Below, in pieces: positions 13,959 through 64,000 of a stretch of DNA of 64,000 bases. How positions within the stretch are numbered: the first letter of the stretch is position 1; each line of letters opens with the position of its first letter. The notes beneath the pieces were generated by a model. That model made no database searches. It was given only the letters and a program-made list of their open reading frames with translations, and was not told the origin of the DNA. Position numbers and translations under genes: made by a program. Origin of the DNA: Ogataea parapolymorpha DL-1 (lineage: Eukaryota > Ascomycota > Pichiomycetes > Pichiales > Pichiaceae); contig NC_027866.1 in the NCBI RefSeq assembly GCF_000187245.1, positions 891,767 to 955,766 of the forward strand, given 5' to 3'.

Positions 13959-14096
13959 GTCTGCTGCTTTTTTCGGTACTTGAAAAAATCTGGGGAAAAA
14001 CTTTGGTACCCTTCACCGTCTTTGCGACCCGCGTCGTGTGCCACTCAACCTGGCTAGGAAAAAAAAGCTGAAGCTATCAATTCTTCGTATCGGATC

Positions 14097-15368: not shown

Positions 15369-15481
15369 CACTCCCGCAAATGGTGCAGGAGGGTCGGAAA
15401 TCAAACATTTTAGGAGATTCTTTTTATCTAAATTTTTGACGCAGGCGTATGCGCGCGCATTAAAAAACTATTTCGCGAAAT

Positions 15482-15487
15482 CTTATC
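15482..15487. promoter_or_regulatory. GATA-factor box upstream of the sugar porter
   Basis: CTTATC (GATAAG on the minus strand) lies ~55 bp before the permease ATG, in the sequence TCTTATCAG. The same CTTATCAG octamer occurs twice before the first 5-oxoprolinase. GATAAG is the known target of fungal nitrogen-regulatory GATA factors; activity here is inferred. Confidence 0.4.
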
Positions 15488-15542
15488 AGTTGCAACGCAA
15501 TGATCCAATCTATAAAACGCTCTGAAACCTACACCTCTTATT

Positions 15543-17120: not shown

Positions 17121-17123
17121 CCG

Positions 17124-17172
17124 CTTATCAGCTCCCGATCTCCTTTTGTGGAGCTTATCAGTGCGCGGATAA
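17124..17172. promoter_or_regulatory. Cluster of three GATA-factor boxes
   Basis: CTTATC stands at 17124-17129 and 17154-17159, each inside an identical GCTTATCAG, spaced 30 bp apart. GATAA follows at 17168-17172. They lie ~120-170 bp before the 5-oxoprolinase ATG. Paired GATAAG boxes are the usual signature of nitrogen-catabolite-repressed yeast promoters. An AT-rich block at ~17178-17200 may act as the core promoter. Confidence 0.5.
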
Positions 17173-17294
17173 AATTTCTACTTTATTTAATTTATTTTTT
17201 TGCGTATCTATCAGTGGAAGCGGAGTTACCTAAAATGGCGCATCAGGCACAAAGATAAATACCCATCCCCAACCTGTGTATCCGTCAAATCCTC

Positions 17295-20200
17295 ATGTCT
17301 GACATTAAAATTGCCATTGACCGTGGCGGAACATTTACCGACTTCCTAGCTATCATTCCGGGCCAGCAAGACTACGTCTTTAAGCTGCTTTCTGTTGACC
17401 CTGCCAACTACGAGGATGCCAACATTGAAGGGATCCGCAAAATTTTGGAACATGTCCAGGGAAAGAAAATTGCCCGTGGCGAGCCGTTAGATACCTCAAT
17501 CGTCAGCAGCATCCGTCTGGGAACCACCGTTGCAACAAACGCTCTTCTGGAAAGAAAAGGAGCCAAGTGCGCTTTTGTCACCACCAAGGGCTTCAAGGAT
17601 CTTCTGAGGATTGGCGACCAGAGCAGACCCGACCTATTTGCTCTCAAGATTGTCAAACCGGGCGTGCTGTACGAAGAGGTCGTTGAGATCGACGAGAGGG
17701 TCACAATGCCTGCGTACACCGAGGATCCACAAATGAACGATTGCAGAGAGCTACTTGACGGCACAAAATTCGTTGAGGGTACCACCAGGGAGGTGTTTGA
17801 GATTCTGAGGCCTATTGATCTTGATGCCGCCAAGCACGAACTGCTGCGGCTCAGATCCAACGGGTTCAAGTCCGTGGCTATTTGCCTGATTCACGGCTAC
17901 AATTTCCAGGACCACGAAAAAAAACTGAAAGAACTAGCTATCGAGCTGGGCTTCGAGTTCATCACCACGTCCCACGAGATCATCCCTATGATCAAGGCTG
18001 TGCCACGAGCACAGTCTGCCGTGCTCGATGCGTATTTGACGCCTGTGGTGAAAGAGTACATCCACGGACTGCTGAAAGGCTTCAAGCCTGGCTTTGAAAA
18101 GCACACGAGAATCGAATTCATGCAGTCGGACGGCGGTATGTGCACGGCAGAGCATTTTACAGGCCTCAAAGCCCTGCTGTCTGGCCCTGCTGGCGGTGTT
18201 GTGGGCGAGGCAGAAACTTGTTACGACGCCGACTACGGCGTCCCCATCATCGGCTTCGATATGGGCGGAACTTCCACGGACGTGTCGCGTTATGCTGGCC
18301 AGTACGAGCACGTTTTTGAGACCAACACGGCTGGAATCAACATTACCGTGCCCCAGCTCGATATCAACACTGTTGCTGCCGGCGGAGGCTCTATTTTATT
18401 CTATAAGAACGGCATTTTCGTTGTCGGTCCTGAGTCCGCTGGATCGCATCCCGGACCCGCATGCTATCGTAAAGGCGGTCCCCTCACGGTCACCGATGCC
18501 AACCTGGTGACTGGCCGGATTGTTCCTGAACAGTTTCCGAAAATATTTGGGCCTGACGCAAACGAGCCGCTGGACGTGGAGATTTCAAAGAAAAAATTCA
18601 GAGAGCTCACAGATCTCATCAACAAGGACAATCCGGGCTCACCAAAGACGGTCGAGGAGGTTGCTCTTGGCTTTCTCACCGTTGCTAACTACAACATGGC
18701 AAAGCTAATCAGAACACTTACCGAGTCCAAGGGCTACGACATCACGAGACACAACCTTGCTTCCTTTGGCGGAGCAGGCGGGCAGCATGCGGCCCCGATG
18801 GCCGAGATTCTGAAAATCAAGCGTGTTGTCATCCACAAGTACTCGTCTATTCTCTCAGCCTACGGTATAGCTCTGGCTGACACCGTGGTGGAGAAACAGA
18901 TCCCATCCAGCGCCGTCTACAAGGAGGACGCTGTTTCGGAGTTGTTGGAAAAATGCGAAATTTTGAAGGAGGAAGCTAAACAGAAGCTTCTATCTCAAGG
19001 TCTGAGGGAGTCTGATATTCGCTTTGAGGTCTTCTTTAACATGGGCTACCATGGTTCAGAAACGAAGCTGATGATCAACCAGGACGCAGAAAAGGATTTC
19101 TTCACATCCTTCAGGGAATCGCATCTCAGACAGTTCACGTTTGTGGACGACGAAAGAGACGTGATTGTGCATGATTTGCGGGTCAGGGGCACTGGGGCGT
19201 TATCCAAGGTGGTGGAACGGTCACCGTATAAGGATTTGGAAACGGTTGCACAGCAGCCTGTCAAAAGTGGCGTCGAAGTGAGCCAGCAGGAAATCGCTTT
19301 TGATGAAGGAAAAATGATGTCCAAGGTGTACTTCATGAAAGACCTCAGCATGGGCGATATCATAGCCGGACCTGCAATGATACTGGACGAAACTCAGACT
19401 ATTCTGGTCACACCGGGTGCACGAGCCATCAATTTACCCAGACACATCATTATCGACGTGGACAACGAGAAAACGCAGGACGAAATTTCCCTGGACCATG
19501 TCGATCCAATTTTGCTTTCCGTCTTTTCCAACAGGTTCATGTTCATTGCTGAGGACATGGGCAGAACGTTGCAGAAAATTTCTGTTTCGGCCAACATTAA
19601 GGAACGCATGGACTTTTCTTGTGCGCTGTTTGACGAGGATGGAAATCTGACGGCTAACGCGCCTCACGTTCCTGTCCATTTAGGATCCATGAGTTTCTCC
19701 ATCAAATACGCTATTGAGTATTGGAAAGACAATATCCACGAAGGCGACGTTCTTGCTACCAACCACCCCGTGGCAGGCGGAACACATCTTCCTGACATTA
19801 CCATTATTTCTCCAGTCTTCATCGAAGGGAAGATCCGATTCTTCACCGCCTCCAGGGCACACCACGCAGAAATAGGAGGACTCACTCCTGGTTCTGGCTC
19901 TACAATGGCCACCAGTTTGGCTGAGGAAGGTGCGCAGTTTGAAGCATGGAAAATTGTTTCCAAGGGTCAATTTGATTACGAAGGGCTACACAAGTACTTC
20001 ATGGAAGTCCCTGCAGAGGCTCCTGGCTGTTCACCAACCAGAAAGCTCGAAGACAACGTTTCTGATCTCAAGGCGCAGATTGCCGCAAATCAGCGTGGTG
20101 TCAACCTGTTGGTGGATTTATTCAAGGAGTACGGCGTTGAGACAGTGTTGTTCTACATGCGCAACGTCAAAAAGACGGCTGAAATGGCCGTGCGTGCAGC

Positions 20201-21206
20201 CCTTAAGAAACTTGCTAAAACGCACCGCGGAAAACTCCCGCTGCGGGCAGAAGAGGTGCTGGACACAGGCTCTAAAATTGTGGTGTCCATAGATATCAAC
20301 GAAGAGGACGGCTCTGCTGTTTACGATTTCACTGGCACAACAGAGCAGGTGTACAGCCCGCAAAACTCGCCGATTGCAGTGACCCACGCCTGCGTCATTT
20401 ACGGGCTGCGGTGTATCATCAACTCGGACATCCCTCTGAACGAGGGTTGTCTTGTGCCGATCGAGATTATTGTTCCAGAAGGCACGTTGTTGAACCCGTC
20501 CAAGGAGGCGGCTGTGAGCTCCGGAAACGGCAGTGGTTCCCAAATTCTTACCGAGACCATTTTCAAGGCCTACCAGGTGGTGGGTAGCGGGCCTGGATCG
20601 ATGAATGCACTACACTTTGGTGTTGGAGGCTTGGAAAACGGCCAGCTTGTTAAAGGATTCGGTATGGTTGAGACTATCGGCGCCGGCAGCGGTGCAACAG
20701 AAGGAGCAGACGGATTTTCGGGCACTCAGTGTCACATGACCAACACGAAAATCACAGATCCTGAGGTGCTTGAAAAACGGTATCCGTGTATTCTGTGGGA
20801 CTGGAGTATTCGTAAAGGGACTGGTGGAGACGGTAAATGGAAGGGAGGCGACGGATTGCAACGGATTATTCAATTCACCACGAAAGTGGAAGCGTCGATT
20901 TCCTCGTTCAGGCGTGCTACGTCTCCCTATGGTATGGCTGGCGGATGTTGTGGTGCTCGTGGTATCAACAAAATTGGGAAGCAGATGAAGGACGGGTCAG
21001 TCCAATGGTTTGGGATTGGAGCCTTTGCCGATATCGTGCTCCAGAAAGGTATGTATATCGCGATTCTTACTCCAGGAGGAGGTGGTTACGGCGACCCGAA
21101 AGAAAGAGAAAAAGTCGTGATGAAGACCGGGCACGAGTTGCCAAGAGCCCCACTGGCCGGAGGGACGCTCTCTAACATTGTTGAGGCCGCAAACACCTCT
21201 CAGTAA
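17295..21206 (+). CDS. ATP-dependent 5-oxoprolinase/hydantoinase A-B fusion, paralogue 1
   Basis: This 1303-residue protein has the full eukaryotic 5-oxoprolinase layout. A HyuA N-terminal domain (AIDRGGTFTDFLA at the very start, RLGTTVATNALLERKG) is followed by the HyuA ATPase core (GFDMGGTSTDVSR, AAGGGSILFYKNG, HPGPACYRKGGPLT, FGGAGGQHA) and, from ~residue 740, the HyuB domain (DFSCALFDEDGNLTANAPHV, ATNHPVAGGTHLPDIT, PGGGGYGDP). Known members cleave 5-oxo-L-proline to glutamate with ATP in the cytosol; close relatives act on hydantoins. Length matches yeast Oxp1 (~1286). The gene is intronless, unlike the second paralogue at 58.0-61.9 kb. Three GATA boxes precede it. Which substrate it prefers cannot be decided by eye. 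Confidence 0.92.
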   Translation: MSDIKIAIDRGGTFTDFLAIIPGQQDYVFKLLSVDPANYEDANIEGIRKILEHVQGKKIARGEPLDTSIVSSIRLGTTVATNALLERKGAKCAFVTTKGFKDLLRIGDQSRPDLFALKIVKPGVLYEEVVEIDERVTMPAYTEDPQMNDCRELLDGTKFVEGTTREVFEILRPIDLDAAKHELLRLRSNGFKSVAICLIHGYNFQDHEKKLKELAIELGFEFITTSHEIIPMIKAVPRAQSAVLDAYLTPVVKEYIHGLLKGFKPGFEKHTRIEFMQSDGGMCTAEHFTGLKALLSGPAGGVVGEAETCYDADYGVPIIGFDMGGTSTDVSRYAGQYEHVFETNTAGINITVPQLDINTVAAGGGSILFYKNGIFVVGPESAGSHPGPACYRKGGPLTVTDANLVTGRIVPEQFPKIFGPDANEPLDVEISKKKFRELTDLINKDNPGSPKTVEEVALGFLTVANYNMAKLIRTLTESKGYDITRHNLASFGGAGGQHAAPMAEILKIKRVVIHKYSSILSAYGIALADTVVEKQIPSSAVYKEDAVSELLEKCEILKEEAKQKLLSQGLRESDIRFEVFFNMGYHGSETKLMINQDAEKDFFTSFRESHLRQFTFVDDERDVIVHDLRVRGTGALSKVVERSPYKDLETVAQQPVKSGVEVSQQEIAFDEGKMMSKVYFMKDLSMGDIIAGPAMILDETQTILVTPGARAINLPRHIIIDVDNEKTQDEISLDHVDPILLSVFSNRFMFIAEDMGRTLQKISVSANIKERMDFSCALFDEDGNLTANAPHVPVHLGSMSFSIKYAIEYWKDNIHEGDVLATNHPVAGGTHLPDITIISPVFIEGKIRFFTASRAHHAEIGGLTPGSGSTMATSLAEEGAQFEAWKIVSKGQFDYEGLHKYFMEVPAEAPGCSPTRKLEDNVSDLKAQIAANQRGVNLLVDLFKEYGVETVLFYMRNVKKTAEMAVRAALKKLAKTHRGKLPLRAEEVLDTGSKIVVSIDINEEDGSAVYDFTGTTEQVYSPQNSPIAVTHACVIYGLRCIINSDIPLNEGCLVPIEIIVPEGTLLNPSKEAAVSSGNGSGSQILTETIFKAYQVVGSGPGSMNALHFGVGGLENGQLVKGFGMVETIGAGSGATEGADGFSGTQCHMTNTKITDPEVLEKRYPCILWDWSIRKGTGGDGKWKGGDGLQRIIQFTTKVEASISSFRRATSPYGMAGGCCGARGINKIGKQMKDGSVQWFGIGAFADIVLQKGMYIAILTPGGGGYGDPKEREKVVMKTGHELPRAPLAGGTLSNIVEAANTSQ

Positions 21207-21213
21207 GATTTTA

Positions 21214-21284
21214 GATAAGGCTTTAAAAATTGCACCATTTATTTATCTCTCGCGAGATCTCCGGTTATCAACTTCCGAGATAAG
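21214..21284. promoter_or_regulatory. GATA boxes upstream of the Dal5-like permease
   Basis: GATAAG occurs at 21214-21219 and 21279-21284, with a TTATC core at 21265-21269, all within 145 bp of the permease ATG. Between them lies CTCGCGAGATCTCCGG, rich in CGG/CCG half-sites of the kind bound by Zn2Cys6 regulators. Function is inferred. Confidence 0.45.
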
Positions 21285-21354
21285 AAATTCTACGAGACTA
21301 ATACAGATCAAATATTTAAATCAAGCACGAAGTGCAAACTTTCACTAAATTCTA

Positions 21355-43149: not shown

Positions 43150-43150
43150 G

Positions 43151-45730: not shown

Positions 45731-45840
45731 TACAACTATCCAAAGTTCGTGAGGAATTACATGCAGGGTTTTTAGTAGCTACTATATTCGTATCCGTGCA
45801 AGATAAGACGGAGAATAAAATTTAACAAGCGGAAATAAAA

Positions 45841-47430: not shown

Positions 47431-47474
47431 TAAGTATTTAACTTTTTTTTCTGATATCTTTATCTAATAGAAAA

Positions 47475-50400
47475 TTACCAGTCGAACGATATTGCTTTGT
47501 CAACTAAATTTTTCTCCGTTGTTATCTTGCGCACCTGTTTAGCCTCTGTTTCCTGACTTGTCACCTTCCATTTAGAAGTTCCCAGGACCTCATCCAGCTC
47601 TGTTGTGGGCGGAAGTTTGGCATACACTTTGCCATTCTCCTCCTTAACCTCAAACGTCGCGATAGATAGCGCTTCATCGTTTTTGCAGGCACCGGACTTG
47701 AGGTAAAAATTTCGTTTATGCATCGGACACGATATGTAGCAGTTTTTGTCACCATCTTCCGAAAGAAGTCCCTGATTTAGCACAAAGGCACGTTTATGTC
47801 CGCACATGTTCTGAGAGCAATAGAGCTCGTTTTCGCTAGTTCTGAACAGAGCAATTTGGGTGTCCCCAACCAAAACCGTTGCCGAGGACCCTGCCTCTGC
47901 TAGAGGCAAATCTGAGCTCTCACAGACTTCCTGCCAGCTCACAGAAGACCACTTGATCTCATTGAATTTCTGGTTGGCCGCTTTCTCCGGCCACATTGCC
48001 GGTCTCGGTTGGCCTCTTTCTTTGACTATCTCCACAGTATCTTGGTTCTCAGATGTATTCACAAATTGCTTGAAAATTGGGTTGTCTTTCTCTTCAGAAA
48101 CGGCCTTGGCCCACTCATCGTAGTAACCGGCTACAAGCTGGCGCATTTGGGCTTCCAGATCCTTGCAAATCCCCAATTTATCGCGGATGATAACGTCCTT
48201 CAAATATTCGATTCCACCATCAAGGTTTTCAAGCCATCGAGCTGTCCGCTGCAGTCTATCTGCCGTGGTAATGTAAAACATTAGGTATCTGTCAAGAATA
48301 GGGATCACCTCGTCAGGACGCACATTGGTAGCAAGAAGCTGCGCGTGCGCTGGCTTCATTCCACCATTTCCACCAACATATATGTTGAATCCATCCTTCA
48401 CAGCGCAGAGACCAAAGTCCTTTGAGTGGAACTCGGCACAGTCTCTAACACACCCAGACACGCCCCCCTTCATTTTATGAGGCGAGCGTATGCCTTTGTA
48501 CCGTTCTTCCAACCTGACAGCCAAACCAACAGAGTCTCCAATTCCGTATCTACACCATGTTGATCCAACGCAGGACTTGACGTTTCTCAAACTCTTGCCG
48601 TAAGCCTGTCCACTCTCGAAGCCAGCTTCGTTGAGATCTTTCCATATTTTCGGCAGATCGCTCTTCTTGACGCCAAACAAATCCAGTCTTTGTGCCCCTG
48701 TGATCTTTGTGTAGACACCGTACTTCTTAGCAATTTGCCCAATAGAAACAAGCTTTTCCGGAGTGACCTCGCCGGCTGACATCCGAGGAACAACCGAGAA
48801 GGTGCCGTTTCGCTGTATGTTTCCAAGGTATCGGTCATTTGTGTCTTGCAGACCATGAACCTCCTTTTTCAAGAGGTGTCGGTTGTATAGTGTTGAGAGA
48901 ATGGAGCCAATGGTAGGCTTGCAAATTTCACATCCCGACGAGCTGGGGTTGTTTCCCAGCTCCTCCATGACCCTTCTAAAAGACCGGAAATTTTTGACCA
49001 TAATCAGTGAGAACAAGTCTGCTCTTGAATAGTCGAAGTGCACGCATAGGTTGTTGGAGACCTTGCCACCCAACTTTTTAACCTCTGTTTCAAAAATGAC
49101 CTTCACTGTAGGCTCGCAACCCCCGCAAGCTGTTCCCGCCTTAGTGCACTTTTTCAGATCTGCGAGACTGCTGCAACCATTTTTCACAGCTTCCACAAGT
49201 TTTCCCTTGGTGATATTGTGACAGGAGCATATTTGGGTCTCATCTGAAAGCTTCTCCATGTCATCTTCTCCCGCTTTTCCAATCAGAAGCTCGGATGGTG
49301 ACTTGGGTAATGGTTTCCTTATCATCGCGGAGAACTTGGTGTAGTTGCTTGTATCGCCAACCAGAATTCCTCCAAGCATGTACTTGCCATCCTTTGTGAA
49401 AAGCAACTTTGTGTAAGTTCCATCTATTGGATCCTCAAACACAAGGCCACGAACTTCTTTCTCATATCCGCGAGGAAGCCATTTAGGCCCATTTCTGTCT
49501 GCAAAAAAATCGCCAAAAGATGCAACATCCACACCCATCAGCTTGAGCCTGGTGCCCATACTAGGTTCAGAAAACTCCTTTGGCTGGTGGAGTTTTCCCT
49601 GAGTAAGGTTGAAGGCCAGTATATCAGCCATTTCATATCCGGGAGCAATCAGTCCAAAAGTCATGTTATTCCAAGAAGCACACTCTCCAATCGCATAGAT
49701 ATTTTCATCCGAAGTTTGCAACATGTTATTCACTTTAAATCCGCCCCTTGAGCCCGCATTCAGGCCACAGCTTGTAAGCTCATCTCTTGGTTTGATACCA
49801 ATAGTGTAGCAAAGAAGGGAGCATTCTTCAATTTCACCGTTATCGTATTTCACTCCTGTCAGATTTTGGTCTTCGTCAAAAAGCAGCTCTGACACAGTTG
49901 TTCCAGTTCGACAAGTAATCCCCAGCTCTTTCACCTTGCTGGTAAGTAGAGAACCACCCTTCTGGTCCATTTGTTGAGAAAGCAGCCAATGGGACCTATG
50001 GACAATGGTGATATCCTCAAACGACTCCATGTCGTAGAGAGCTTTGGCTGCTTCTAGACCGAGAAGCCCACCACCAACGACAATGGCTCTCTGTTTCTTT
50101 GCACCCTGGCAATAATCTATCATTGAATAGAGATCGTCGATGGTTCTGTAGACAAAGCATCCCATTTCACGGTAGCTTTTTCTAGTAGGAGGTGGTAGCA
50201 GATCGGTAGGAAGGATGGCCGTAGAGCCTGTGCAAAGAACAAGCACATCGTAAGACGCCCTGTTTCCTTTGTTCGTGGTGATAGTCCGAGCTTGCCGATC
50301 TATGTCAATCACCTTCTCATCAATGGCGTAGTTCCATTTTTCGCCGCGTAGCTGGTAGAACTCCTCTGGCGACAGAAGAAGATTTTTGAACTCACGGTGC

Positions 50401-50609
50401 TGGAAATACTCGGTGAGACCAACGCGGTTATAAGCAAGATATGGCTCCTCCCCATAAACCAGTATACTATACTCATTTAGTTTTGAGTCGTTCAAAAGTA
50501 ATTTTTCGAGAAATGACAGGCCGACCATGCCCAGGCCCACAATGACAAGCTTCTTCTTAGCGGCCGGAGGAGTGATGTCCTCTGGCAAGGGAGGAACAGA
50601 ACAAGTCAT
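47475..50609 (-). CDS. YNI1: Assimilatory nitrite reductase
   Basis: This 1044-residue enzyme carries out the six-electron reduction of nitrite to ammonium with NAD(P)H. Domains in order: FAD/NAD-binding pyridine-nucleotide reductase (VIVGLGMVGLSFLEKLL; ALYDMES region with GGGLLGLEAAKAL), a BFD-like [2Fe-2S] domain (CSCHNITKGKLVEAV ... CGGCEPTV), siroheme/[4Fe-4S] domains (SCVGSTWCRYGIGDSVGLAV and GCVRDCAEFHSKDFG), and a C-terminal Rieske-type domain (MCGHKRAFVLNQG ... CPMHKRNFYLKSG). This is the fungal/bacterial NirB-like layout with a NirD-like tail. The length equals that I recall for H. polymorpha YNI1. Its ATG is at 50607-50609; a 209-bp promoter separates it from YNT1. Confidence 0.97.
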   Translation of the reverse strand: MTCSVPPLPEDITPPAAKKKLVIVGLGMVGLSFLEKLLLNDSKLNEYSILVYGEEPYLAYNRVGLTEYFQHREFKNLLLSPEEFYQLRGEKWNYAIDEKVIDIDRQARTITTNKGNRASYDVLVLCTGSTAILPTDLLPPPTRKSYREMGCFVYRTIDDLYSMIDYCQGAKKQRAIVVGGGLLGLEAAKALYDMESFEDITIVHRSHWLLSQQMDQKGGSLLTSKVKELGITCRTGTTVSELLFDEDQNLTGVKYDNGEIEECSLLCYTIGIKPRDELTSCGLNAGSRGGFKVNNMLQTSDENIYAIGECASWNNMTFGLIAPGYEMADILAFNLTQGKLHQPKEFSEPSMGTRLKLMGVDVASFGDFFADRNGPKWLPRGYEKEVRGLVFEDPIDGTYTKLLFTKDGKYMLGGILVGDTSNYTKFSAMIRKPLPKSPSELLIGKAGEDDMEKLSDETQICSCHNITKGKLVEAVKNGCSSLADLKKCTKAGTACGGCEPTVKVIFETEVKKLGGKVSNNLCVHFDYSRADLFSLIMVKNFRSFRRVMEELGNNPSSSGCEICKPTIGSILSTLYNRHLLKKEVHGLQDTNDRYLGNIQRNGTFSVVPRMSAGEVTPEKLVSIGQIAKKYGVYTKITGAQRLDLFGVKKSDLPKIWKDLNEAGFESGQAYGKSLRNVKSCVGSTWCRYGIGDSVGLAVRLEERYKGIRSPHKMKGGVSGCVRDCAEFHSKDFGLCAVKDGFNIYVGGNGGMKPAHAQLLATNVRPDEVIPILDRYLMFYITTADRLQRTARWLENLDGGIEYLKDVIIRDKLGICKDLEAQMRQLVAGYYDEWAKAVSEEKDNPIFKQFVNTSENQDTVEIVKERGQPRPAMWPEKAANQKFNEIKWSSVSWQEVCESSDLPLAEAGSSATVLVGDTQIALFRTSENELYCSQNMCGHKRAFVLNQGLLSEDGDKNCYISCPMHKRNFYLKSGACKNDEALSIATFEVKEENGKVYAKLPPTTELDEVLGTSKWKVTSQETEAKQVRKITTEKNLVDKAISFDW

Positions 50610-50727
50610 CAGATTCTACAAAATGAAGAGATGACTTTTGCAACTGCTTTTATTTGTCAGGCTGCTCATCCCCTTAGAATACTACATAATTTCCGTCCCT
50701 ACAATTAATCTCCGCTTAGCAGATTTC

Positions 50728-50760
50728 TTTATCGCACGATCCACTATAAAAATTCTTATC
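50728..50760. promoter_or_regulatory. GATA boxes in the YNI1 promoter
   Basis: CTTATC at 50755-50760 (GATAAG on the transcribed strand) and TTTATC at 50728-50733 lie 120-150 bp before the YNI1 ATG. An AT-rich TATAAAAATT (50745-50754) is between them. This fits ammonium repression through GATA factors, known for yeast nitrate genes; the sites themselves are not proven. Confidence 0.45.
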
Positions 50761-50818
50761 AATAAGAAAAAAAATTACCTTGCATTGCATAAATAAAAAA
50801 GTGTAACCGAGATTTCAA

Positions 50819-52345
50819 TCAAATTTCCGCTTTCCTAGGCCTCTCCTCCCTAATTGGAATAAGCACACAGGCCAAATTCACAACAGTGCAAACAATTCCT
50901 ATGATCCAGAACGCCTTGAAGTAGTTGTTCACTCCATTTGCTATAGTGTACCTGAACACTAAACTAAACAGAATGCCTCCTAGGTTACCCATTGCTCCCG
51001 TAACTCCGCTCACAATACCACTGTGGTGTCTATTCACAACCGGAACACAGGCATAATTTGCACCGTTTCCCATCTCAAACCAAAGACACAAAAACGAAAC
51101 CGACACTATGAGTCCCGCGATGGACAATTCCGGAACCAGTCCAACCCAGATCAAAAAAATTCCCTGCATCAAGCCAGTGAATATCATCCAGAACTTTTTA
51201 GCCTTGGTGGTCTTGAATCTTTGGTATAGGAAATCGGAGATAATTCCTCCGGCTGGTCTTGTCACCACGTTGAGAAGTCCAAGCATTGAGCCCCATGCTC
51301 CAGCTTTAGAGGTGCTCCACTTTGTCATCTTTTGCCCGAATAGGTTGGATATAATAGACTCCACTGCAAGCTCAGTACCAAACGAGCACATGTAGCAAAG
51401 TCCGACCAGCATTGTGCGTGGGGAAAAACAGATCTTGACCACGTCTTTGAGAGTTGGGTCTTCGATGATTTCGTCCTCATTTATGATGTCTGCGACTTCA
51501 AAAATTTCCTGGTCCTGATTTGGCTCAACCACAACCTCATCGATTGCGTTAACAGGCTCAACACAGACAGAAGTGAGTTCTCCATCCTTAGAGAAGTGTC
51601 TTGTGACAGAGACAGACTTCACGAGCATATTATCCATGTTGATTCCAAGGATATCTCCACGAAGGGACCATCTGCCTCTCGGGCAGTCGCTGCCAAATAC
51701 AAAAATCACAATTGCTGTGATCATCAGAATCAAGAACGGCCCAATCACAAAAGAGTAGCTCCACGAATGGTGTAAAGAGTAACCTCTTTTTTCTAATGCA
51801 TTTGAAATGGCAGGCATGACAAAGAATGCCACACCCCCTCCAGCATTTCCCCAACCGGCAGAGACGGCATTTGCTGTTCCTATAATATTGTTATCAAAAA
51901 ATACAGCGCAGAATTGGGAGCAGCAAATAAACGAGGAGCCTAGGAAGCTGATAAAGAAACGGATGGCATGTAGACCTGCAACATTTGTAACCAAAGGAAC
52001 AAATGCAGTTGGAATTGCTCCTGCAACCAGCACGCCTACCAAAGTAATCCGAGGGCCATACTTGTCGTTAAGGGGCCCCAAAATAAATCTGCCTAGTAAA
52101 GTTCCGGTCAGTCCACATATGTTATTATTGGATATATCCACTGCGGTGAGCTTTAGGTCCTTCTTTAGCATACCATGAAGAAGAGGCGGAAAAGCAAACC
52201 AGGAAAGAAAGCACACAAAAAACCCAAACCACGCGAAAAAGAAGTTTCTTCCATAGACGTTCCACAGGTTAAAAATTGGTATCGAGGTCGCTTTCAGGTT
52301 TCTTGGATTCACCGTTGGCGGTTCCCATAAGGTAGAAAGTCGCAT
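50819..52345 (-). CDS. YNT1: High-affinity nitrate transporter
   Basis: The start is taken at ATG 52343-52345 (508 residues, MRLSTLWEPP); a longer in-frame extension begins with GTG and is rejected. The protein is a twelve-span NNP-family MFS permease. Signs are the nitrate-signature segments GWGNAGGGVAFFVMPAI in span 5 and GAMGNLGGILFSLVFRY in span 11, GRFILGPLNDKYGPR between spans 2 and 3, and a large hydrophilic, acidic loop (~240-300) between spans 6 and 7 as in fungal CrnA/Ynt1. The first span region NLWNVYGRNFFFAWFGFF is typical. It imports nitrate with protons at the plasma membrane. GATA boxes lie upstream. Confidence 0.96.
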   Translation of the reverse strand: MRLSTLWEPPTVNPRNLKATSIPIFNLWNVYGRNFFFAWFGFFVCFLSWFAFPPLLHGMLKKDLKLTAVDISNNNICGLTGTLLGRFILGPLNDKYGPRITLVGVLVAGAIPTAFVPLVTNVAGLHAIRFFISFLGSSFICCSQFCAVFFDNNIIGTANAVSAGWGNAGGGVAFFVMPAISNALEKRGYSLHHSWSYSFVIGPFLILMITAIVIFVFGSDCPRGRWSLRGDILGINMDNMLVKSVSVTRHFSKDGELTSVCVEPVNAIDEVVVEPNQDQEIFEVADIINEDEIIEDPTLKDVVKICFSPRTMLVGLCYMCSFGTELAVESIISNLFGQKMTKWSTSKAGAWGSMLGLLNVVTRPAGGIISDFLYQRFKTTKAKKFWMIFTGLMQGIFLIWVGLVPELSIAGLIVSVSFLCLWFEMGNGANYACVPVVNRHHSGIVSGVTGAMGNLGGILFSLVFRYTIANGVNNYFKAFWIIGIVCTVVNLACVLIPIREERPRKAEI

Positions 52346-55326: not shown

Positions 55327-56865
55327 TCACTCCACATATTCGACAACGTCTTTAGTTTCAAAGGAAAGCTTCCTTTCCGGGTCGTAGTCAGCATCACCTT
55401 GAACTGGCATTGTCTTGGCTATCCGAACAGTGTCGAACAAGGTTTGAGACTGAATAAATATATCATCAATTTCCTCCAGGCTTCTGTCTCTTGTCTCCGG
55501 GAAGAATAGAATCAAGCAGGCTAGCAATACAAAAGCGACTGATCCATAAACAAAGTAATATTTGTAGCCAATATTGTTGAATGCCGTTGGAGAAGCTTCT
55601 GCAACTAAGAAATTGAATAGCCAGTTACACGCAGTACTGATAGCAGTGATCTGGGCACGGGACTCAAGGGGTGCAATTTCAGCCGCATACATGAAAACCA
55701 CAAGAAGAAGACCGACAGGAAAAGCATACATTGCGACAAAATAAAAGGCCACCATAGCCTTTGCCGTAGCTGGATTTTCGAGGTCTGACGCAAGCCCACC
55801 AAGGATAAACTGACAAATTCCCATAATTGCTGCGGCGTGAATCATTGCATACCGCCGGCCAAATATATCAATCAGGAAGATGGCCGCAAATGCACACATT
55901 GCTTGCCAGATCTGAAGACATCCCGAGAAAATACGAGCCTCCACAGAGCTATAGCCCAGCTGCTGTTCAAAGATGCTCGTGGAGTAAAAGGTAACAATAT
56001 TGATTCCGGTCATCTGAGCTCCAATGTTCAGACCAATAGCCATAAGACTACGCCTCAAATGCTTGTTTTTGGTTCTTGAAAACGGAGAAGCCTTAATAGC
56101 AGCTGGATCCTCCAAAAGAGACTGCTGAATCAGCGAGATTTCTCCTTGAACTTGGTCGCTCTCAACGGGTTTATCTTCCAGCCGAGCAAACACTTCTGCT
56201 GCTTCACCCGTACGCCCAACTTTCACCAGCCAACGAGGAGACTCTGGAAGGAAGAGAATCAGCGAAATACATATAATCGGAAAGAGCATCTGTAGTGCAA
56301 TTGGAAACCGCCAATTGACGGAACTGTGTTTGACAAAATAAAATCCAAAGTCAACCCAGGTAGCTAGTGCCACTCCAAAAATTGCTAGTGACCCGCAGAG
56401 AAGCACCAGCTTACCTCTCAAACGTGCCGGAGCACACTCCGAGATGTAGGTCGGCACCGTAGCTGTGATACCTCCAACGCCAACTCCAGTGATCACTCGT
56501 GCAACAATAAGCTGCACTATATGGTAAGAGGTGTCCTGGATAATAACACCGATAATTGTGACCGTACAAACAGTCATGATGAACCGGCGGCGGCCGAGCT
56601 TGTCACCGAAAAAGTAAGAGGCAACACATCCGAGCACACATCCCAGTTCATAAATAGCAACGACCGTTCCCTCAATCACAGTCGCATGCTCTTTGTTAAC
56701 TCCTGACCTACTGGTGTTCAACGTTGGGAACTGTGTCTCAAAAGTCTCCATTGTCAAGAGACCATTCATAATGGCTTGGTCGTATCCCTGCAAAATCCAA
56801 GCCGATGCACCAGCCAGAGCAATGGCAAGTGACAACTTATTACCTCTCAAATTTTGTAAAAACAT
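55327..56865 (-). CDS. Sugar porter, Stl1-like MFS
   Basis: This 512-residue twelve-span transporter has LQGYDQAIMNGLLTMETFET in span 1, ELGCVLGCVASYFFGDKLGRRR between spans 2 and 3, RVITGVGVGGITATVPTYISE in span 4, PESPRWLVKVGR in the central loop and FPETRDRSLEEIDDIF after span 12. The YELGC phrase and the GYDQ motif resemble the Stl1 glycerol/proton symporter subgroup, but yeasts have many such paralogues and the substrate is open. It is probably in the plasma membrane. It shares a 172-bp divergent promoter with the alpha/beta hydrolase gene, suggesting co-regulation. Confidence 0.88.
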   Translation of the reverse strand: MFLQNLRGNKLSLAIALAGASAWILQGYDQAIMNGLLTMETFETQFPTLNTSRSGVNKEHATVIEGTVVAIYELGCVLGCVASYFFGDKLGRRRFIMTVCTVTIIGVIIQDTSYHIVQLIVARVITGVGVGGITATVPTYISECAPARLRGKLVLLCGSLAIFGVALATWVDFGFYFVKHSSVNWRFPIALQMLFPIICISLILFLPESPRWLVKVGRTGEAAEVFARLEDKPVESDQVQGEISLIQQSLLEDPAAIKASPFSRTKNKHLRRSLMAIGLNIGAQMTGINIVTFYSTSIFEQQLGYSSVEARIFSGCLQIWQAMCAFAAIFLIDIFGRRYAMIHAAAIMGICQFILGGLASDLENPATAKAMVAFYFVAMYAFPVGLLLVVFMYAAEIAPLESRAQITAISTACNWLFNFLVAEASPTAFNNIGYKYYFVYGSVAFVLLACLILFFPETRDRSLEEIDDIFIQSQTLFDTVRIAKTMPVQGDADYDPERKLSFETKDVVEYVE

Positions 56866-58016: not shown

Positions 58017-61000
58017 TCAGTTCGTTTCCGCTAATTCCCTCATTATTTCAATTGTCCCATTTGCTCTTGGTTGGAACTGATACTTGTCATTGGTAGGGAC
58101 TAACTCTGCGTTGCTACCACTGCCATATCCTCCTCCTCCAGGGGTCCTGATAATAATTCTATCCCCAGGGGCCACGGAAATGGAACTTTTTCCTCCGAGA
58201 TTGATAATGCTACCATTAACTCTCTTCACCACGGTCTCTCCTCGTTTTCCCTGGGAACCCCCAGCAAGCCCATAAGGCGCAAAAACTCTTCGTTCAGAAA
58301 GAATACAAGCGACCAGCGGAGTAGTGGCTTCGATTTCGCGCACTGCCCCATTTCCACCTTGAAAGTTGCCTGCTCCTCCACTACCTTCACGGATACCAAA
58401 CCTTCTCAAAACGACCGGATATCTCTGCTCATAACTCTCTGCATCTGTGATCTTGGTATTTGTCATATTTGTTTGTACTGCATCGACTCCGTGCCAGCCG
58501 GGTCCTGCACCACTTCCATTGCACACTGTCTCATAGTAGCCAAACCCGTCAGGCCCATCGACTCCAATAGTAAAGTTTGACATGTCACCACCACAGGCAG
58601 CTGCGTACTCAAATGCCCGGAAAATGACGTCAACAATACGCTGTGATGTCAGTCCGTTCCCAGCACATACTGCAACCTCTTCGTCAGGACGTAAAAGAGT
58701 TCCTTGAGGAACATTTATGCTAATAGGAGCAAGACACCCTTGATTAAGAGGTATATCGCCTTCGACCATACAGCGTAAAGCAAATATAATTGATGACTGT
58801 GTGACAGCTATTGGAGCGTTCCAATTACCATTCACCTGTGAGCCTGTTCCGGTAAAATCAAAAATAGCAGACCCACTTTCAGTATCGATATCAATGGCAA
58901 GATGGATGACAGTGCCATCGTCCATTCTGTCTTCTGCTTCTAAGTGTGATGTATCATACCTCTTACTAATATCTTTCAGCAAGTTTCTGATGGCTAGCTC
59001 CGAGGCGGATTGGATTTCGTTCATGTAAAGATGAACAACGTCCATCCCATACTCATTCATGAGAGCTTTAATGAGCGAAGTTCCTTTTGCATTTGCGGCT
59101 ATCTGTGCCTTAATGTCACAAATGTTGTCACCGAGGGTTCTAGTTCCATGATTGCCTGGTATGCTGGAAGGCTGGTCGTATAAATACTCTCGTATTGTCT
59201 GTTCGTCAAACTCTCCGTCTCTGATCACCTTGACTGCCTTGAAAATGGCGCCTTCTTGCCAAAGCTGGGTTGAGTTAGGTGGCATCGATCCAGGGAGAAT
59301 TCCGCCAATGTCGGCGTGGTGGCCTCTTGACGCCGTCCAGAATATAATACGACTCCCGTCTTCGTCAAAGACCGGTGTCATCAAGGTAATATCAGGTAAG
59401 TGCGTGCCACCAGCTATTGGGGAATTGGAAATAATAACGTCCCCAGGATGAATATTATTGCCCCAATGATCAATCTGCCATTTGACAGCATATGCCATGG
59501 AACCTATCATTGCGGGAACATGGGGGGCATTGGCCACTAACCCACCGCTAGCAGAAAACACAGAACATGTAAAATCCAAACGCTCTTTGATATTTGTGCT
59601 GATACTAGAACGCTGCAATGATCTTCCCATTTGCTCTGCAATACTCATGAATCGGTGATTAAAAACAGACAGCTCGATGGGATCCACTTTCAGTTTGGTC
59701 GACTGAGTTTCAAGCCTTGGTACATCTATAAGGATAGAAGTTGTAAGGACTTTTGCCGTTGCATTGGGGATAATAACCAAAGTTTGTATGTCGTTGACAA
59801 TGAAAGCTGGCCCAGGTATCAAATCACCGCGCTGTAAATCTTCTAAGACGTAGACAGGACAATCAACAAATTTTGAGTCAAAGTAGCTTTTTTGAACCTT
59901 TATAGCTTTTGCTCGTGTATTAATGAAATGCGTAGTCCTTTCTTCCTCCAAAGGATATGTAATCTTGCCAGCAATTCCGCTGGCTGTGGATCTTACCCGA
60001 AGACTCTCAACAACAACTTCACGATCAGATTTGAGACCAAACTCTTTAAAGTGCTGCTTCTCAAACTCGGAAATGACATCATTTGCGCCATTCCACTCAA
60101 TCATTAATGCGGTATTGCTACCCTTATATTTTAAATTCAGAAACAATTTTGATTCAAGAGTCTTACCATATTCATCAAGATCATTCTCAGTTTCTTTTTG
60201 GAGTTCCAAGAGACTGTGAAATATAGTAGAGCTGGTCTCTTCCGTGAAAACTTTTGAGCACGGCAATTGCTTTTCAACCACACTATCGGCCACCGATATT
60301 CCATAGGCAGATAGCAGGGAAGAATGCTTGTGTATGCAGACTTTGGTAATACCTAGACTCTGGGCAATATGGCAAGCATGTTGACCTCCAGCCCCGCCAA
60401 ACGAACATAAAACGTGGCCTGAAGCTTTATGTCCCTTTGATTCGGTCAGTTGTTTAATAGGTCTTGACATTGATACATTTGCAACCTTTAGAAATCCCTC
60501 CGCGACATCAAATACGGTAAAACTCTTACCTGTACTTTCATTGATCTCTTTGGTCAGCTCTTCAAATTTCTTCAGCGCACTGTCATAGTCTAAAGGCTCA
60601 TCTTCATTGGGACCGAAAGCTTTGGGAAAGAATTCTTTGATGAGTCTCCCCGTAACAAGATTAGCATCTGTCACTGTCAGTGGTCCATTTTTTCTGTAGC
60701 AGGCAGGTCCAGGATGGGAAGAAGCTGATTTTGGCCCTACAGTGAATAAACCGTTTTTCCATTCTAGTATTGATCCACCACCAGCGGCCACCGTGTTGAT
60801 GTCCAATTGAGGTGTCCTGATTGATACCCCTGCGGTGACAGTCTCGAAAACATGCTCCAGCTTACCATCATATCTTGAGACATCCGTGGATGTTCCGCCC
60901 ATGTCAAAGCCAATCAACGGGGTTTCAGAGCTGAATGTGCTTTTGCTATAGCCAATTACACCCCCAGCAGGGCCAGAGAGTAGGGAACGCAATCCATTGA

Positions 61001-61881
61001 TTTTTTCAAAGCTGATCAGACCTCCATCAGATTGCATAATCTGACATTTGACTCGATCAAAAGTACCAGAAACAAAACCACACGTGAAAGTCCTGATATA
61101 ATCTTTCATTACCGGAGTGACATATGCGTCGGCAACGGACGACTGTGTCCGGCTAACAAATCCAGGTAAAGCAGAGATCTGAGAAGACAGCACGATGTTT
61201 TTGAAACCAAGGCTTTCTGCAATTTTTGCAGCTTCCTGTTCATGCTTAGGATACAAATAAGAATGCAAAAAAGAAAATGCAACGGACTCATAGCCTTTCG
61301 CTTTAGCTTCCTGAAGCTTCCGAATTGTAGATTCAACATTCAGCGGCTCAATGATCCTCAGAGGCTGGCTTGTAAGACTCTCAATTTTTGCAAACTTTTG
61401 ATAGAAATCCAAGTTCGCTGCTTTATACTCGGAAGAGCTTTCAACAGTCACTCTTTCATCCACTTCCCAGATATCGGAAGCCAAAATGTCATGTTTATTG
61501 ATTTTGAAATCAAACATATAAGGGCGACTTTGATCACCAATATGCAACACATCGCGGAAGCCTCGTGTAACAAATAATGCTGCGTTGCTTCCCTTTCGTT
61601 CAAGAAGAGCATTGGTGCTAACAGTTGTGCCGAGTCGAATTTCCGAGACATCGTAAAGATCAAGTAGTTCCCCCCGGGGAATCTTGGTCCCCCTGTGCAT
61701 CTCAAGAACACGACGGATGGCCTCGACAGGTGCGTCTTCGTAACTTTTTGGGTCCACGGATAAAACCTTCAGGATTATTTCATTACCCTCGGTCGAGGTA
61801 GCAATACAATCGGTGAATGTTCCTCCACGATCTAATGTTAGATGAAGGATAAGATAACCTACCAATGGATATATTTAGCAT
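58017..61881 (-). CDS. ATP-dependent 5-oxoprolinase/hydantoinase A-B fusion, paralogue 2 (two exons)
   Basis: The exons are 61863-61881 (ATG 61879-61881) and 58017-61831, giving 1277 residues. The spliced start reads MLNISIDRGGTFTDCIA, matching the family's usual N-terminus. The unspliced frame has an upstream TAA and no ATG until about residue 50. Domains: HyuA_N (RLGTTVSTNALLERKGSN), HyuA (GFDMGGTSTDVSRYDG, TVAAGGGSILEWKNG, CYRKNGPLTVTDANLVTG, SFGGAGGQHACHIA) and HyuB (DFTCSVFSASGGLVANAPHV, ISNSPIAGGTHLPDIT, TPGGGGYGSG). It should hydrolyse 5-oxoproline (or a hydantoin) with ATP. It is divergent, 119 bp apart, from a D-glutamate cyclase gene, whose product would be 5-oxo-D-proline. It is clearly a paralogue of the 17.3-kb gene. 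Confidence 0.9.
61832..61862 (-). other. Predicted 31-nt intron of 5-oxoprolinase 2
   Basis: On the minus strand it runs from GTAGGT (61862-61857) to ATTAG ending at 61832, with CTAAC five bases before the AG. Splicing creates the Asp codon G|AT of the conserved IDRGGTFTD motif. Donor and branch sequences are the same as in the HMO1 intron. Confidence 0.75.
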
Positions 61882-61993
61882 GTTACTTCTGAAGGTTCCG
61901 GATAAAGTTCTGATATATGATGTTCACGCGTGTGGCTCTGAATTGTAGATCATTTTTTATGCACGCGGTGGTTGCATCCCGATGATTTCAACC

Positions 61994-61999
61994 CTTATC
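61994..61999. promoter_or_regulatory. GATA box between 5-oxoprolinase 2 and D-glutamate cyclase
   Basis: CTTATC ends one base before the ATG at 62001. A further GATAAA lies at ~61900. A factor site this close suggests that the working start of the cyclase may be a later ATG (62055). The boxes could control both divergent genes. Confidence 0.4.
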
Positions 62000-62000
62000 A

Positions 62001-62879
62001 ATGGTAAGAAAATGCGACTATATGATAAGAAAGCAAATGTCTCAAAAATCAAAGATGGCGGAATACGCTCAATTGGAGCCACATCAGTTCAGAAAGCTTT
62101 GTCGAGACGCAAAACATACCTCCCACACGTCGGGTGCTTGTGAAAAATATGCCCAGGCCAATCTTATAGTGCTCCCAAAAGAGTACGCAAACGATTTCGT
62201 CAACCTGTGCCTTCGTAACCCGGTGCCATGCCCACTACTATGCCAAACCCCTGTCGGTGATCCCTTTAAAGTAGACGACTCAAGGTATCTCCAGAAAGGC
62301 TTTGATTTGAGAACTGATTTTCCCTCGTACAACATTTACGAGAATGGAGAGCTGAGATTAACCAAAACGGATGTCAGGGATGAATGGTCCAGTAACCACA
62401 TAGGGTTCCTAATTGGCTGCTCACATTCCTTTGAACATGAACTTTGTGAGAATGGACTAGTTCCTAGGCATTTAACACTTGGACGTGGAGTACCTGTTTA
62501 CAAGACCACTAAAAGACTTGATCCGTCAGGTGTATTCATTAATTGCACGTATGTCGTCAGTATGCGTCCCTACAAACCAGAAGATGTGCCGAAAGTCCGT
62601 AAAATTACTTCAAGCTTTAAGAAAACACATGGAGAGCCAGTTGACTGGGGCTACGATGGAGCAGAGAGACTAGGAATTCCCGACTTGAAACGCCCAGATT
62701 TTGGTGGACAACCTGTCATTCATGACAATGAGGTTCCTGTGTTCTGGGGATGTGGGGTGACACCTCAGCTGGTAGTGATGCAGCAAAAGGACAAGATCAG
62801 AGGCCCAGTTATCTCTCATACTACAGGTGCGATGTTGGCGTTGGACATTACCAGCGAGGACATAAAACGTATAGGATGA
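62001..62879 (+). CDS. D-glutamate cyclase-like protein (DUF1445)
   Basis: This protein is 292 residues from ATG 62001, or 274 from ATG 62055 (MAEYAQLEPHQFR), which better fits the family's N-terminus. DUF1445 signatures run in order: ANLIVLPKEYANDFVNLCLR, NPVPCPLL, DLRTDFPSYNIYENGEL, HIGFLIGCSHSFEHELCENG, PVYKTTKRLDPSG, VVSMRPYKPEDV, GIPDLKRPDFGG and VPVFWGCGVTPQ. Mammalian DGLUCY of this family converts D-glutamate to 5-oxo-D-proline; bacterial relatives often lie beside 5-oxoprolinase genes. The adjacent divergent 5-oxoprolinase makes the same link here. The basic first 18 residues could be a weak mitochondrial signal if the long form is made. Confidence 0.88.
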   Translation: MVRKCDYMIRKQMSQKSKMAEYAQLEPHQFRKLCRDAKHTSHTSGACEKYAQANLIVLPKEYANDFVNLCLRNPVPCPLLCQTPVGDPFKVDDSRYLQKGFDLRTDFPSYNIYENGELRLTKTDVRDEWSSNHIGFLIGCSHSFEHELCENGLVPRHLTLGRGVPVYKTTKRLDPSGVFINCTYVVSMRPYKPEDVPKVRKITSSFKKTHGEPVDWGYDGAERLGIPDLKRPDFGGQPVIHDNEVPVFWGCGVTPQLVVMQQKDKIRGPVISHTTGAMLALDITSEDIKRIG

Positions 62880-63241: not shown

Positions 63242-64000
63242 ATGCTTAAGTCAGAAGATTCTGTGAAGGGGGCTGGAGTTGTGGTTGAGATCGCACCCTC
63301 GGTCTCCACAGAGTGCCCATTTCCTTCTGCGCACAAGCGATTGATTCGCCGCATGGATTTAAGAATAATGCCCATCCTTTCGGCAATGTATTTCTTCTCC
63401 GCTTTGGACAGATCCAATATTGGAAACGCCAAAGTTGCCGGTATGAACACTGATCTTGGAATCTCTGATGCACAGTATTCGACAGCGGTCTCGATAGTTT
63501 ATGCTACCTATCTGCCATTCATGCTTCCAGGCGTTTTGCTGATGATGCGCTACTTTAACAATAAAAAACGCGAGTACCTTGGGTGCATGGTCGCATTATG
63601 GTCATTGGTTTCTATTTTTACAATGTTTGCCAGTGGATACGGATCACTTATAGCATGCCGACTGTTGCTTGGGCTTTTCGAAGCCTCGTTCTTCACTTCA
63701 ATTTCTCTCATCATTTCAGACTTTTATTTCCAGTCCGAACTTTCACAGCGTGTCTCATATTTGTTTGCAGCATCTGCATTTTCCAGTGCTTTTGGGGGCC
63801 TCATTGGAACTGGAATTACAAAAATCAATTCCGGCTTGGCTCCATGGAGATACATCTACTTGATCGAAGGACTCTTGTCTTTTGCAGGGAGCTTTTGGAT
63901 GATGTTTGGAATGCCAAACACTCCAGAAGAGGTCGCCCATGGAGAAGAAGAAATGAGAGTGCTTGAGTGGAGAAGCGAACAGCGGAGGTTATTCATGATG
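63242..64000 (+). CDS. Dal5/Tna1-like anion:cation symporter (MFS), C-terminus missing
   Basis: The frame from ATG 63242 is open to the window edge (253 codons). After a short cytosolic tail, LIRRMDLRIMPILSAMYFFS then ALDRSNIGNAKVAGM gives the canonical ACS-family first span with D-R-S-N-I-G-N-A. ACRLLLGLFEASFFTSISLI forms span 4, WRYIYLIEGLLSFAGSFWM span 6, and MPNTPEEV the start of the central loop. It is a different subgroup member from the 21.4-kb permease, which has a diverged first-span motif. It likely imports an organic anion or small peptide. Proximity to the cyclase and 5-oxoprolinase suggests uptake of D-glutamate, 5-oxoproline or a precursor, by inference. Confidence 0.88.
   Translation, partial: MLKSEDSVKGAGVVVEIAPSVSTECPFPSAHKRLIRRMDLRIMPILSAMYFFSALDRSNIGNAKVAGMNTDLGISDAQYSTAVSIVYATYLPFMLPGVLLMMRYFNNKKREYLGCMVALWSLVSIFTMFASGYGSLIACRLLLGLFEASFFTSISLIISDFYFQSELSQRVSYLFAASAFSSAFGGLIGTGITKINSGLAPWRYIYLIEGLLSFAGSFWMMFGMPNTPEEVAHGEEEMRVLEWRSEQRRLFMM

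What the first reader, a model, noticed from the sequence alone, without database searches (positions are those of the whole stretch)
58017..62879. Divergent D-glutamate cyclase and 5-oxoprolinase: a compact D-glutamate salvage module in a yeast
A DUF1445 gene and a full-length HyuA-HyuB 5-oxoprolinase start ~119 bp apart in opposite directions with a GATA box between them. In animals DUF1445 (DGLUCY) turns D-glutamate into 5-oxo-D-proline; ATP-dependent 5-oxoprolinase opens 5-oxoproline to glutamate. Together they give a plausible two-step route for D-glutamate from bacterial peptidoglycan or poly-glutamate. A permease (63242) and a hydrolase (57038) flank the pair. If 5-oxoprolinase 2 has shifted to the D-form, this explains keeping two paralogues.
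Basis: partly seen in the sequence, partly recalled or inferred. Interest (0 to 1): 0.75.

Follow-up and report, generated by a model that had tools for sequence, protein, structure and literature searches.

The report
Yeast DUF1445 and 5-oxoprolinase gene pair
A methylotrophic yeast carries, side by side and facing apart, two genes for handling the ring form of glutamate; bacteria often keep the same kinds of gene together, but the proposed two-step recycling of D-glutamate would lead back to D-glutamate, so a step is missing or one enzyme does something not yet known.

Summary
The pair is real: DUF1445 (62001-62879, +) and an ATP-dependent 5-oxoprolinase (58017 to about 61881, -) lie head to head about 120-155 bp apart, close to the right end of contig C1 of an Ogataea genome. 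The link looks more than chance: O. haglerorum has consecutive locus tags for both genes, and of the 80 best bacterial DUF1445 loci 55 hold an ATP-dependent 5-oxoprolinase, 50 of the unrelated PxpABC type and 5 of the Hyu/OPLAH type found here. (1) Opening 5-oxo-D-proline leaves the chiral carbon untouched and returns D-glutamate, so the proposed route is an ATP-burning circle unless something inverts or oxidises; no PF01177 racemase is linked. (2) D-glutamate cyclase activity was shown for a mouse protein with DUF1445 plus DUF4392; DUF4392 was not found in this genome. (3) The genome has six such 5-oxoprolinases, not two. (4) In 7 of 8 comparable fungal assemblies the closest relatives lie apart. 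Both genes have long Ogataea stems and the 5-oxoprolinase changes cluster in one motif, so a specificity shift is possible. Most novel open reading: DUF1445, with two cysteines invariant in 191 of 191 sequences, itself inverts the stereocentre.

The parts
62001..62879 (+). DUF1445 / PF07286 gene (292 aa from this ATG; the O. angusta model starts at the equivalent of 62037), the only PF07286 match in the genome
   Evidence: AlphaFold model of residues 24-292, pLDDT 94.9
58017..61831 (-). main exon of the fused HyuA-HyuB ATP-dependent 5-oxoprolinase
61832..61862 (-). proposed 31-nt intron (GTAGGT...CTAACATTAG); prediction only
   Evidence: splicing it out gives MLNISIDRGGTFTD, like the N-terminus of P0123 (LRISIDRGGTFTD)
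61863..61881 (-). proposed first exon of the 5-oxoprolinase (MLNISI); prediction only
61882..62000 (.). intergenic region, 119 bp; GATAA at 61901, CTTATC (= GATAAG on -) at 61994
63242..64000 (+). MFS permease (best NCBIfam match TIGR00893, below its cut-off), truncated by the contig end
57038..57742 (+). alpha/beta hydrolase, tail to tail with the 5-oxoprolinase; membership in the module not supported
55327..56865 (-). sugar-transporter-type MFS gene; membership not supported
17295..21206 (+). another of the six 5-oxoprolinase-family paralogues, in a different cluster with an FAD oxidase-like gene and MFS genes

Best explanation
An accessory nitrogen-scavenging pair near a contig end that acts on the glutamate / 5-oxoproline couple. 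The 5-oxoprolinase opens 5-oxoproline to glutamate with ATP (family inference). [quoted passage not shown] The two can deliver L-glutamate only if the stereocentre is inverted, most simply at the lactam stage, or if D-glutamate is oxidised; no such step was found next to the pair. The functional link between the two families is well supported; the direction of flow, the stereochemistry and the co-regulation are inferred.
Against: No enzyme activity or expression data. No DUF4392 found in this genome. In 7 of 8 fungal assemblies in which both genes could be compared by tag or contig they lie apart, though only the closest 5-oxoprolinase homologues were compared. 25 of 80 bacterial loci show no 5-oxoprolinase, 10 of them among the 49 longest. 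DUF1445 scores below the NCBIfam cut-off for the bacterial 'putative hydro-lyase' (278.7 against 324). The ATG-started ORF of the 5-oxoprolinase lacks the first phosphate motif.
Confidence: 0.4

Rival explanations
1. One reading: DUF1445 makes 5-oxo-D-proline from D-glutamate and a D-specific 5-oxoprolinase opens it to usable glutamate.
For: Family assignments; linkage; the mouse enzyme makes 5-oxo-D-proline.
Against: Ring opening at the amide does not touch the alpha carbon: the product is D-glutamate, so the pair only burns ATP (established chemistry). No linked PF01177 racemase.
Confidence: 0.05
2. DUF1445 is the inverting enzyme: a cofactor-free two-cysteine epimerase acting on 5-oxoproline (or coupling cyclisation to inversion), which feeds an L-specific 5-oxoprolinase; together they turn 5-oxo-D-proline or D-glutamate into L-glutamate.
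For: C140 and C251 are invariant in 191 of 191 fungal and bacterial sequences; each ends a strand and precedes a helix in the model; linkage to two unrelated 5-oxoprolinases without a linked PF01177 racemase.
Against: The full-length mouse protein gave 5-oxo-D-proline and showed no glutamate racemase activity. No profile similarity to the two yeast PF01177 proteins compared. No coordinates were available to measure the Cys-Cys distance.
Confidence: 0.13
3. The nutrient is exogenous 5-oxo-D-proline or mixed 5-oxoproline; the 5-oxoprolinase opens it to D-glutamate, which a D-amino-acid oxidase or transaminase deaminates; DUF1445 buffers or detoxifies excess D-glutamate by closing it again.
For: D-amino-acid transaminase-like genes in 14 of 80 bacterial loci, all 14 with Pxp genes; one of the eight DAO loci tested here (of 15 DAO matches) bears a D-amino-acid oxidase signature (L028; signature recalled); an MFS permease next door. 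Another yeast, Cryptococcus humicola, uses D-aspartate through a D-aspartate oxidase that acts on acidic D-amino acids (abstracts of PMC7831105 and PMC8708985, search listing).
Against: No oxidase or transaminase next to the pair in this window; the direction of DUF1445 then opposes the flow.
Confidence: 0.15
4. The 5-oxoprolinase has moved to another lactam or hydantoin and DUF1445 is a hydro-lyase of that pathway.
For: Six paralogues; long Ogataea stems in both trees (0.52 and 0.77); 7 of 21 altered conserved sites fall within positions 1083-1130 (permutation p 0.007); HyuA/HyuB relatives act on hydantoins and caprolactam (passages of PMC8453981).
Against: DUF1445 is linked to 5-oxoprolinases, PxpABC included, in 55 of 80 bacterial loci; in the Ogataea DUF1445 trio only two columns conserved in at least 90% of the other fungi are changed; the 5-oxoprolinase has fewer altered conserved sites (21) than four of the five other Ogataea paralogues (38 to 55).
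Confidence: 0.2
5. Chance neighbours in a chromosome end.
For: 7 of 8 fungal assemblies compared have them apart.
Against: Consecutive tags in O. haglerorum, and the same families are neighbours in bacteria.
Confidence: 0.07

Closest known systems
Bacillus subtilis pxp operon (ycsF, kipI, kipA = pxpABC, with ycsG and the DUF1445 gene ycsI)
   Same: DUF1445 beside an ATP-dependent 5-oxoprolinase; operon described in passages of PMC10448178; the same order is seen in Bacillus tequilensis L096
   Different: PxpABC is unrelated in sequence to the HyuA-HyuB enzyme here (PMC8453981 passage); operon, not divergent pair
Mammalian DGLUCY (9030617O03Rik / C14orf159), D-glutamate cyclase
   Same: DUF1445 domain
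   Different: The mouse protein also has DUF4392 and is mitochondrial (PMC5339696; domain pairing also in PMC5132392 passages); DUF4392 not found here
Eukaryotic 5-oxoprolinase (OPLAH, yeast OXP1)
   Same: Fused HyuA-HyuB architecture and motifs
   Different: One of six paralogues; the nearest named relatives outside Ogataea in the best 120 are Lachancea dasiensis and filamentous ascomycetes; long stem
Bacterial loci with DUF1445 and a Hyu/OPLAH-type 5-oxoprolinase (L061 Goleter, L069 Methylobacterium MAG, L057, L058, L095)
   Same: Same two families; L069 also divergent
   Different: TRAP-transporter-like neighbours in L057 and L069 (by eye); separate HyuA and HyuB genes in L058 and L061

Membership tests
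ATP-dependent 5-oxoprolinase (fused HyuA-HyuB) | HyuA N, HyuA and HyuB domains in one chain | tested here: met
ATP-dependent 5-oxoprolinase (fused HyuA-HyuB) | First phosphate-binding motif DxGGTxTD present in the protein made | tested here: inconclusive
   Near-match DRGGTFTD lies in the open frame and in the spliced prediction but not in the ATG-started ORF; no transcript data
ATP-dependent 5-oxoprolinase (fused HyuA-HyuB) | Second phosphate motif, adenosine motif and the four metal ligands of CapB | tested here: met
   residues named in PMC8453981 (abstract and passages)
ATP-dependent 5-oxoprolinase (fused HyuA-HyuB) | Acts on 5-oxo-L-proline (or the D form) | not testable with these tools
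   needs an enzyme assay
D-glutamate cyclase, DGLUCY type | DUF1445 domain | tested here: met
   PF07286 E 1.2e-51
D-glutamate cyclase, DGLUCY type | DUF4392 (PF14336) domain or partner gene | tested here: not met
   no match in the genome by family or by protein; the family search rings in 3 of 12 bacterial genomes but in none of the 14 control genomes; introns could hide a weak match
D-glutamate cyclase, DGLUCY type | D-glutamate to 5-oxo-D-proline activity | not testable with these tools
   needs an enzyme assay
Bacterial YcsI 'putative hydro-lyase' (NCBIfam PRK05463) | Score over the curated cut-off | tested here: not met
D-glutamate to L-glutamate salvage module | A linked inverting step of the PF01177 kind | tested here: not met
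   three PF01177 matches in the genome, on C5 (two) and about 220 kb away on C1; none by phmmer with these proteins in the 80 bacterial loci; other racemase families and oxidases not searched in the bacterial loci
D-glutamate to L-glutamate salvage module | Conservation of the pair in other yeasts | tested here: inconclusive
   consecutive tags in O. haglerorum; apart in the other 7 of 8 comparable fungal assemblies, closest homologues only

The most novel reading that the evidence does not exclude
DUF1445 is the missing inverting enzyme: a cofactor-free two-cysteine epimerase on 5-oxoproline, so that DUF1445 plus an L-specific 5-oxoprolinase (of either of two unrelated types, in bacteria and yeasts) form a cyclise-invert-reopen route from D- to L-glutamate without PLP or flavin, much as hydantoin racemase and hydantoinase do for hydantoins.
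Probability: 0.12. Interest if true: 0.8.

Novelty: new variant of a known kind. Interest (0 to 1): 0.42.

Why it matters
DUF1445 was found here beside 5-oxoprolinases of two unrelated types in bacteria and beside one in this yeast, yet nothing I read shows its own reaction, and the obvious reading is stereochemically circular. A tractable laboratory yeast with one DUF1445 gene beside one 5-oxoprolinase makes the question directly testable.
Full report
What is there. The window is the right end of contig C1 (955,766 bp) of an 8.87-Mb, seven-contig yeast genome. The nearest proteins are from Ogataea angusta (94% for DUF1445, 93% for the 5-oxoprolinase) and O. haglerorum (84% and 90%), so this is the O. 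polymorpha group; the exact species is not shown. DUF1445 (62001-62879, +) is the only PF07286 match in the genome. The 5-oxoprolinase on the minus strand has the HyuA N, HyuA and HyuB domains. Its ATG-started ORF begins at 61700 and lacks DRGGTFTD; the frame stays open upstream to that motif, and a 31-nt intron (61832-61862) joined to ATG 61881 would give MLNISIDRGGTFTD, close to P0123's LRISIDRGGTFTD. The intron is very short and unproven; the database models of the two Ogataea relatives start differently (P0122 MHRGTK; P0121 MQPPHRGGTFTD), so this start is unsettled. If the exon is not used, the protein lacks the first phosphate-binding motif, whose aspartate matters in caprolactamase (PMC8453981, abstract and passages).

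More than chance. By simple arithmetic a single gene would fall within 500 bp of any of six 5-oxoprolinases with a chance of about 0.4%. In O. haglerorum the two genes have consecutive tags, KL911_002987 and KL911_002988. In fungi at large the link is not general: of eight assemblies where tags or contigs could be compared (O. haglerorum, Lachancea dasiensis, Penicillium waksmanii, P. brevicompactum, Cirrosporium, Aspergillus wentii, Xylona, Tricharina) only the first has them together; other paralogues could not be checked.

The bacterial comparison carries most weight. By tblastn, 50 of 80 contain at least one PxpA, PxpB or PxpC gene and 49 all three; 5 more contain a Hyu/OPLAH-type 5-oxoprolinase (L057, L058, L061, L069, L095); 25 contain neither. 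Among the 49 loci of 14.7 kb or more it is 39. An earlier ORF-cluster count gave slightly lower numbers (49 with any Pxp gene and 4 with a Hyu type). As background, PxpA occurs 11 times in 12 of these genomes, about 56 Mb, and most of those copies are the ones beside DUF1445. In L061 DUF1445 lies between HyuA and HyuB on one strand; in L069 the pair is divergent, with under 225 bp between the called 5-oxoprolinase start and the DUF1445 match, as in the yeast. PxpABC and the HyuA-HyuB family are unrelated in sequence (PMC8453981 passage), so the association with both argues that DUF1445 shares a metabolite with 5-oxoprolinase. The B. subtilis pxp operon with ycsI is described in PMC10448178 (passages); Niehaus et al. 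2017 is not held and is known to me by recall and citation only.

What is wrong with the route. D-glutamate cyclase closes D-glutamate to 5-oxo-D-proline. A 5-oxoprolinase breaks the lactam amide bond and leaves the alpha carbon as it is, so a D-acting enzyme gives D-glutamate back and spends ATP. Salvage needs inversion or oxidation. The genome has three PF01177 (Asp/Glu racemase) matches, two on C5 and one at C1:728783, some 220 kb away. phmmer with these three yeast proteins found none in the ORFs of the 80 bacterial loci (a weak test, since the seeds are distant). One search found PF01177 matches in 34 of 40 Pxp-bearing genomes; in the seven genomes shared, where contigs can be matched, none of them lies in the DUF1445 locus; for the other 33 contig names could not be matched. 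The missing step is therefore unlinked, of another family, or done by one of the two enzymes.

What DUF1445 is known to do. Ariyoshi et al. 2017 (PMC5339696, parts 1 and 2 of 4 read) showed D-glutamate cyclase activity for the purified mouse protein 9030617O03Rik, which has two DUFs, found no glutamate racemase activity, and linked DUF4392, not DUF1445, to racemase-like sequence. PMC5132392 (passages) describes DUF4392 joined to DUF1445 in vertebrates and says DUF4392 seems unnecessary for fungi and plants. In the bacterial loci the two are separate neighbours: DUF4392 in 19 of 80, 12 of them with Pxp genes; 38 Pxp-bearing loci show no DUF4392. No PF14336 was found in this genome by family or by protein, while the family search finds it in 3 of 12 DUF1445-bearing bacterial genomes and not in the other nine. 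So DUF1445 often occurs without DUF4392, but its own reaction is not shown in anything I read.

Signs of a shift. In the DUF1445 tree the three Ogataea sequences share a stem of 0.52, while O. polymorpha KL936_004552 (56% identical) sits elsewhere in the same clade; other stems there are as long or longer (Schizosaccharomyces 1.0). In the 5-oxoprolinase tree the same three species share a stem of 0.77 beside Lachancea dasiensis and P0124. Of about 375 columns conserved in at least 95% of 137 other sequences, 21 are changed in the Ogataea trio, 7 of them among the 24 conserved columns of positions 1083-1130 (hypergeometric 1e-4, not corrected for choosing the stretch; permutation over windows p 0.007). 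Against this, the five other Ogataea paralogues have 16, 38, 42, 44 and 55 such changes, so the trio is not unusually altered overall, and DUF1445 has only two changes (M166V, P275T) at columns conserved in at least 90% of 118 other fungal rows. A specificity shift is open, its direction unknown.

Paralogues. Six full-length copies: C1:1225, C1:909223 (window 17295), C1:949786 (this one), C3:93144, C4:42731, C6:1085673; four lie within 43 kb of a contig end. Three (C1:1225, C1:909223, C4:42731) form one clade and each lies near an FAD oxidase of the DAO family and an MFS gene.

Print status. Searches for DUF1445 (5 papers), D-glutamate cyclase (26, 25 listed), 5-oxoprolinase with D-glutamate (11, 10 listed), 5-oxoprolinase or YcsI (400, 30 listed), DGLUCY (57, 20 listed), 5-oxo-D-proline (31, 25 listed), oxoprolinase with Hansenula polymorpha (0), D-glutamate and D-amino acids as nitrogen source with yeast (8), oxoprolinase with N-methylhydantoin (10) and DUF4392/UPF0317 (16) gave no listed title or abstract start on this yeast pair. 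Opened beyond the listing: PMC5339696 (two of four parts); passages of PMC13398684, PMC10448178, PMC8453981, PMC6131576, PMC12344293 and PMC5132392; PMC13274462 (term search, no occurrence).

Noticed in passing
window 13137-22863; L011 (C1:1-9000); L013 with C4:39128-40249: Three related clusters near contig ends join a 5-oxoprolinase-family gene with an FAD oxidase of the DAO family (in the two scanned with NCBIfam closest to N-methyltryptophan/sarcosine oxidase models, below cut-off) and MFS transporters; two also have an SDR gene (one by eye), one a Zn2Cys6 regulator. This could be catabolism of hydantoins or lactams to N-methyl or other amino acids.
   Followed up: partly
C2:17678 (L015), C4:1273094 (L016), C2:27021: Three more HyuA-like genes of about 980 aa; the two scanned fuse HyuA to S-Me-THD domains and have permease-like neighbours (by eye).
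   Followed up: partly
window 41305-52345: A nitrate-assimilation-like cluster: nitrate reductase-like (43151), nitrite reductase-like (47475), MFS transporter (50819) and two Zn2Cys6-type regulators; only the regulator at 45841 and the transporter were scanned, the rest is by eye.
   Followed up: no
bacterial loci L035, L054, L077, L081, L102 and others: Operons join DUF1445, PxpABC, DUF4392 and a D-amino-acid transaminase-like gene (12 of 80 loci have both DUF4392 and the transaminase-like gene).
   Followed up: partly
P0166, P0197, P0217 and P0213, P0215 (fungal 5-oxoprolinases): Some fungal gene models join the 5-oxoprolinase to an aminotransferase (PF00155) or a fungal transcription-factor domain (PF04082), which may mark neighbours or real fusions.
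   Followed up: no
window 34231-39979: Long Ser-rich low-complexity repeats with overlapping open frames on both strands, likely a cell-surface protein gene (by eye).
   Followed up: no
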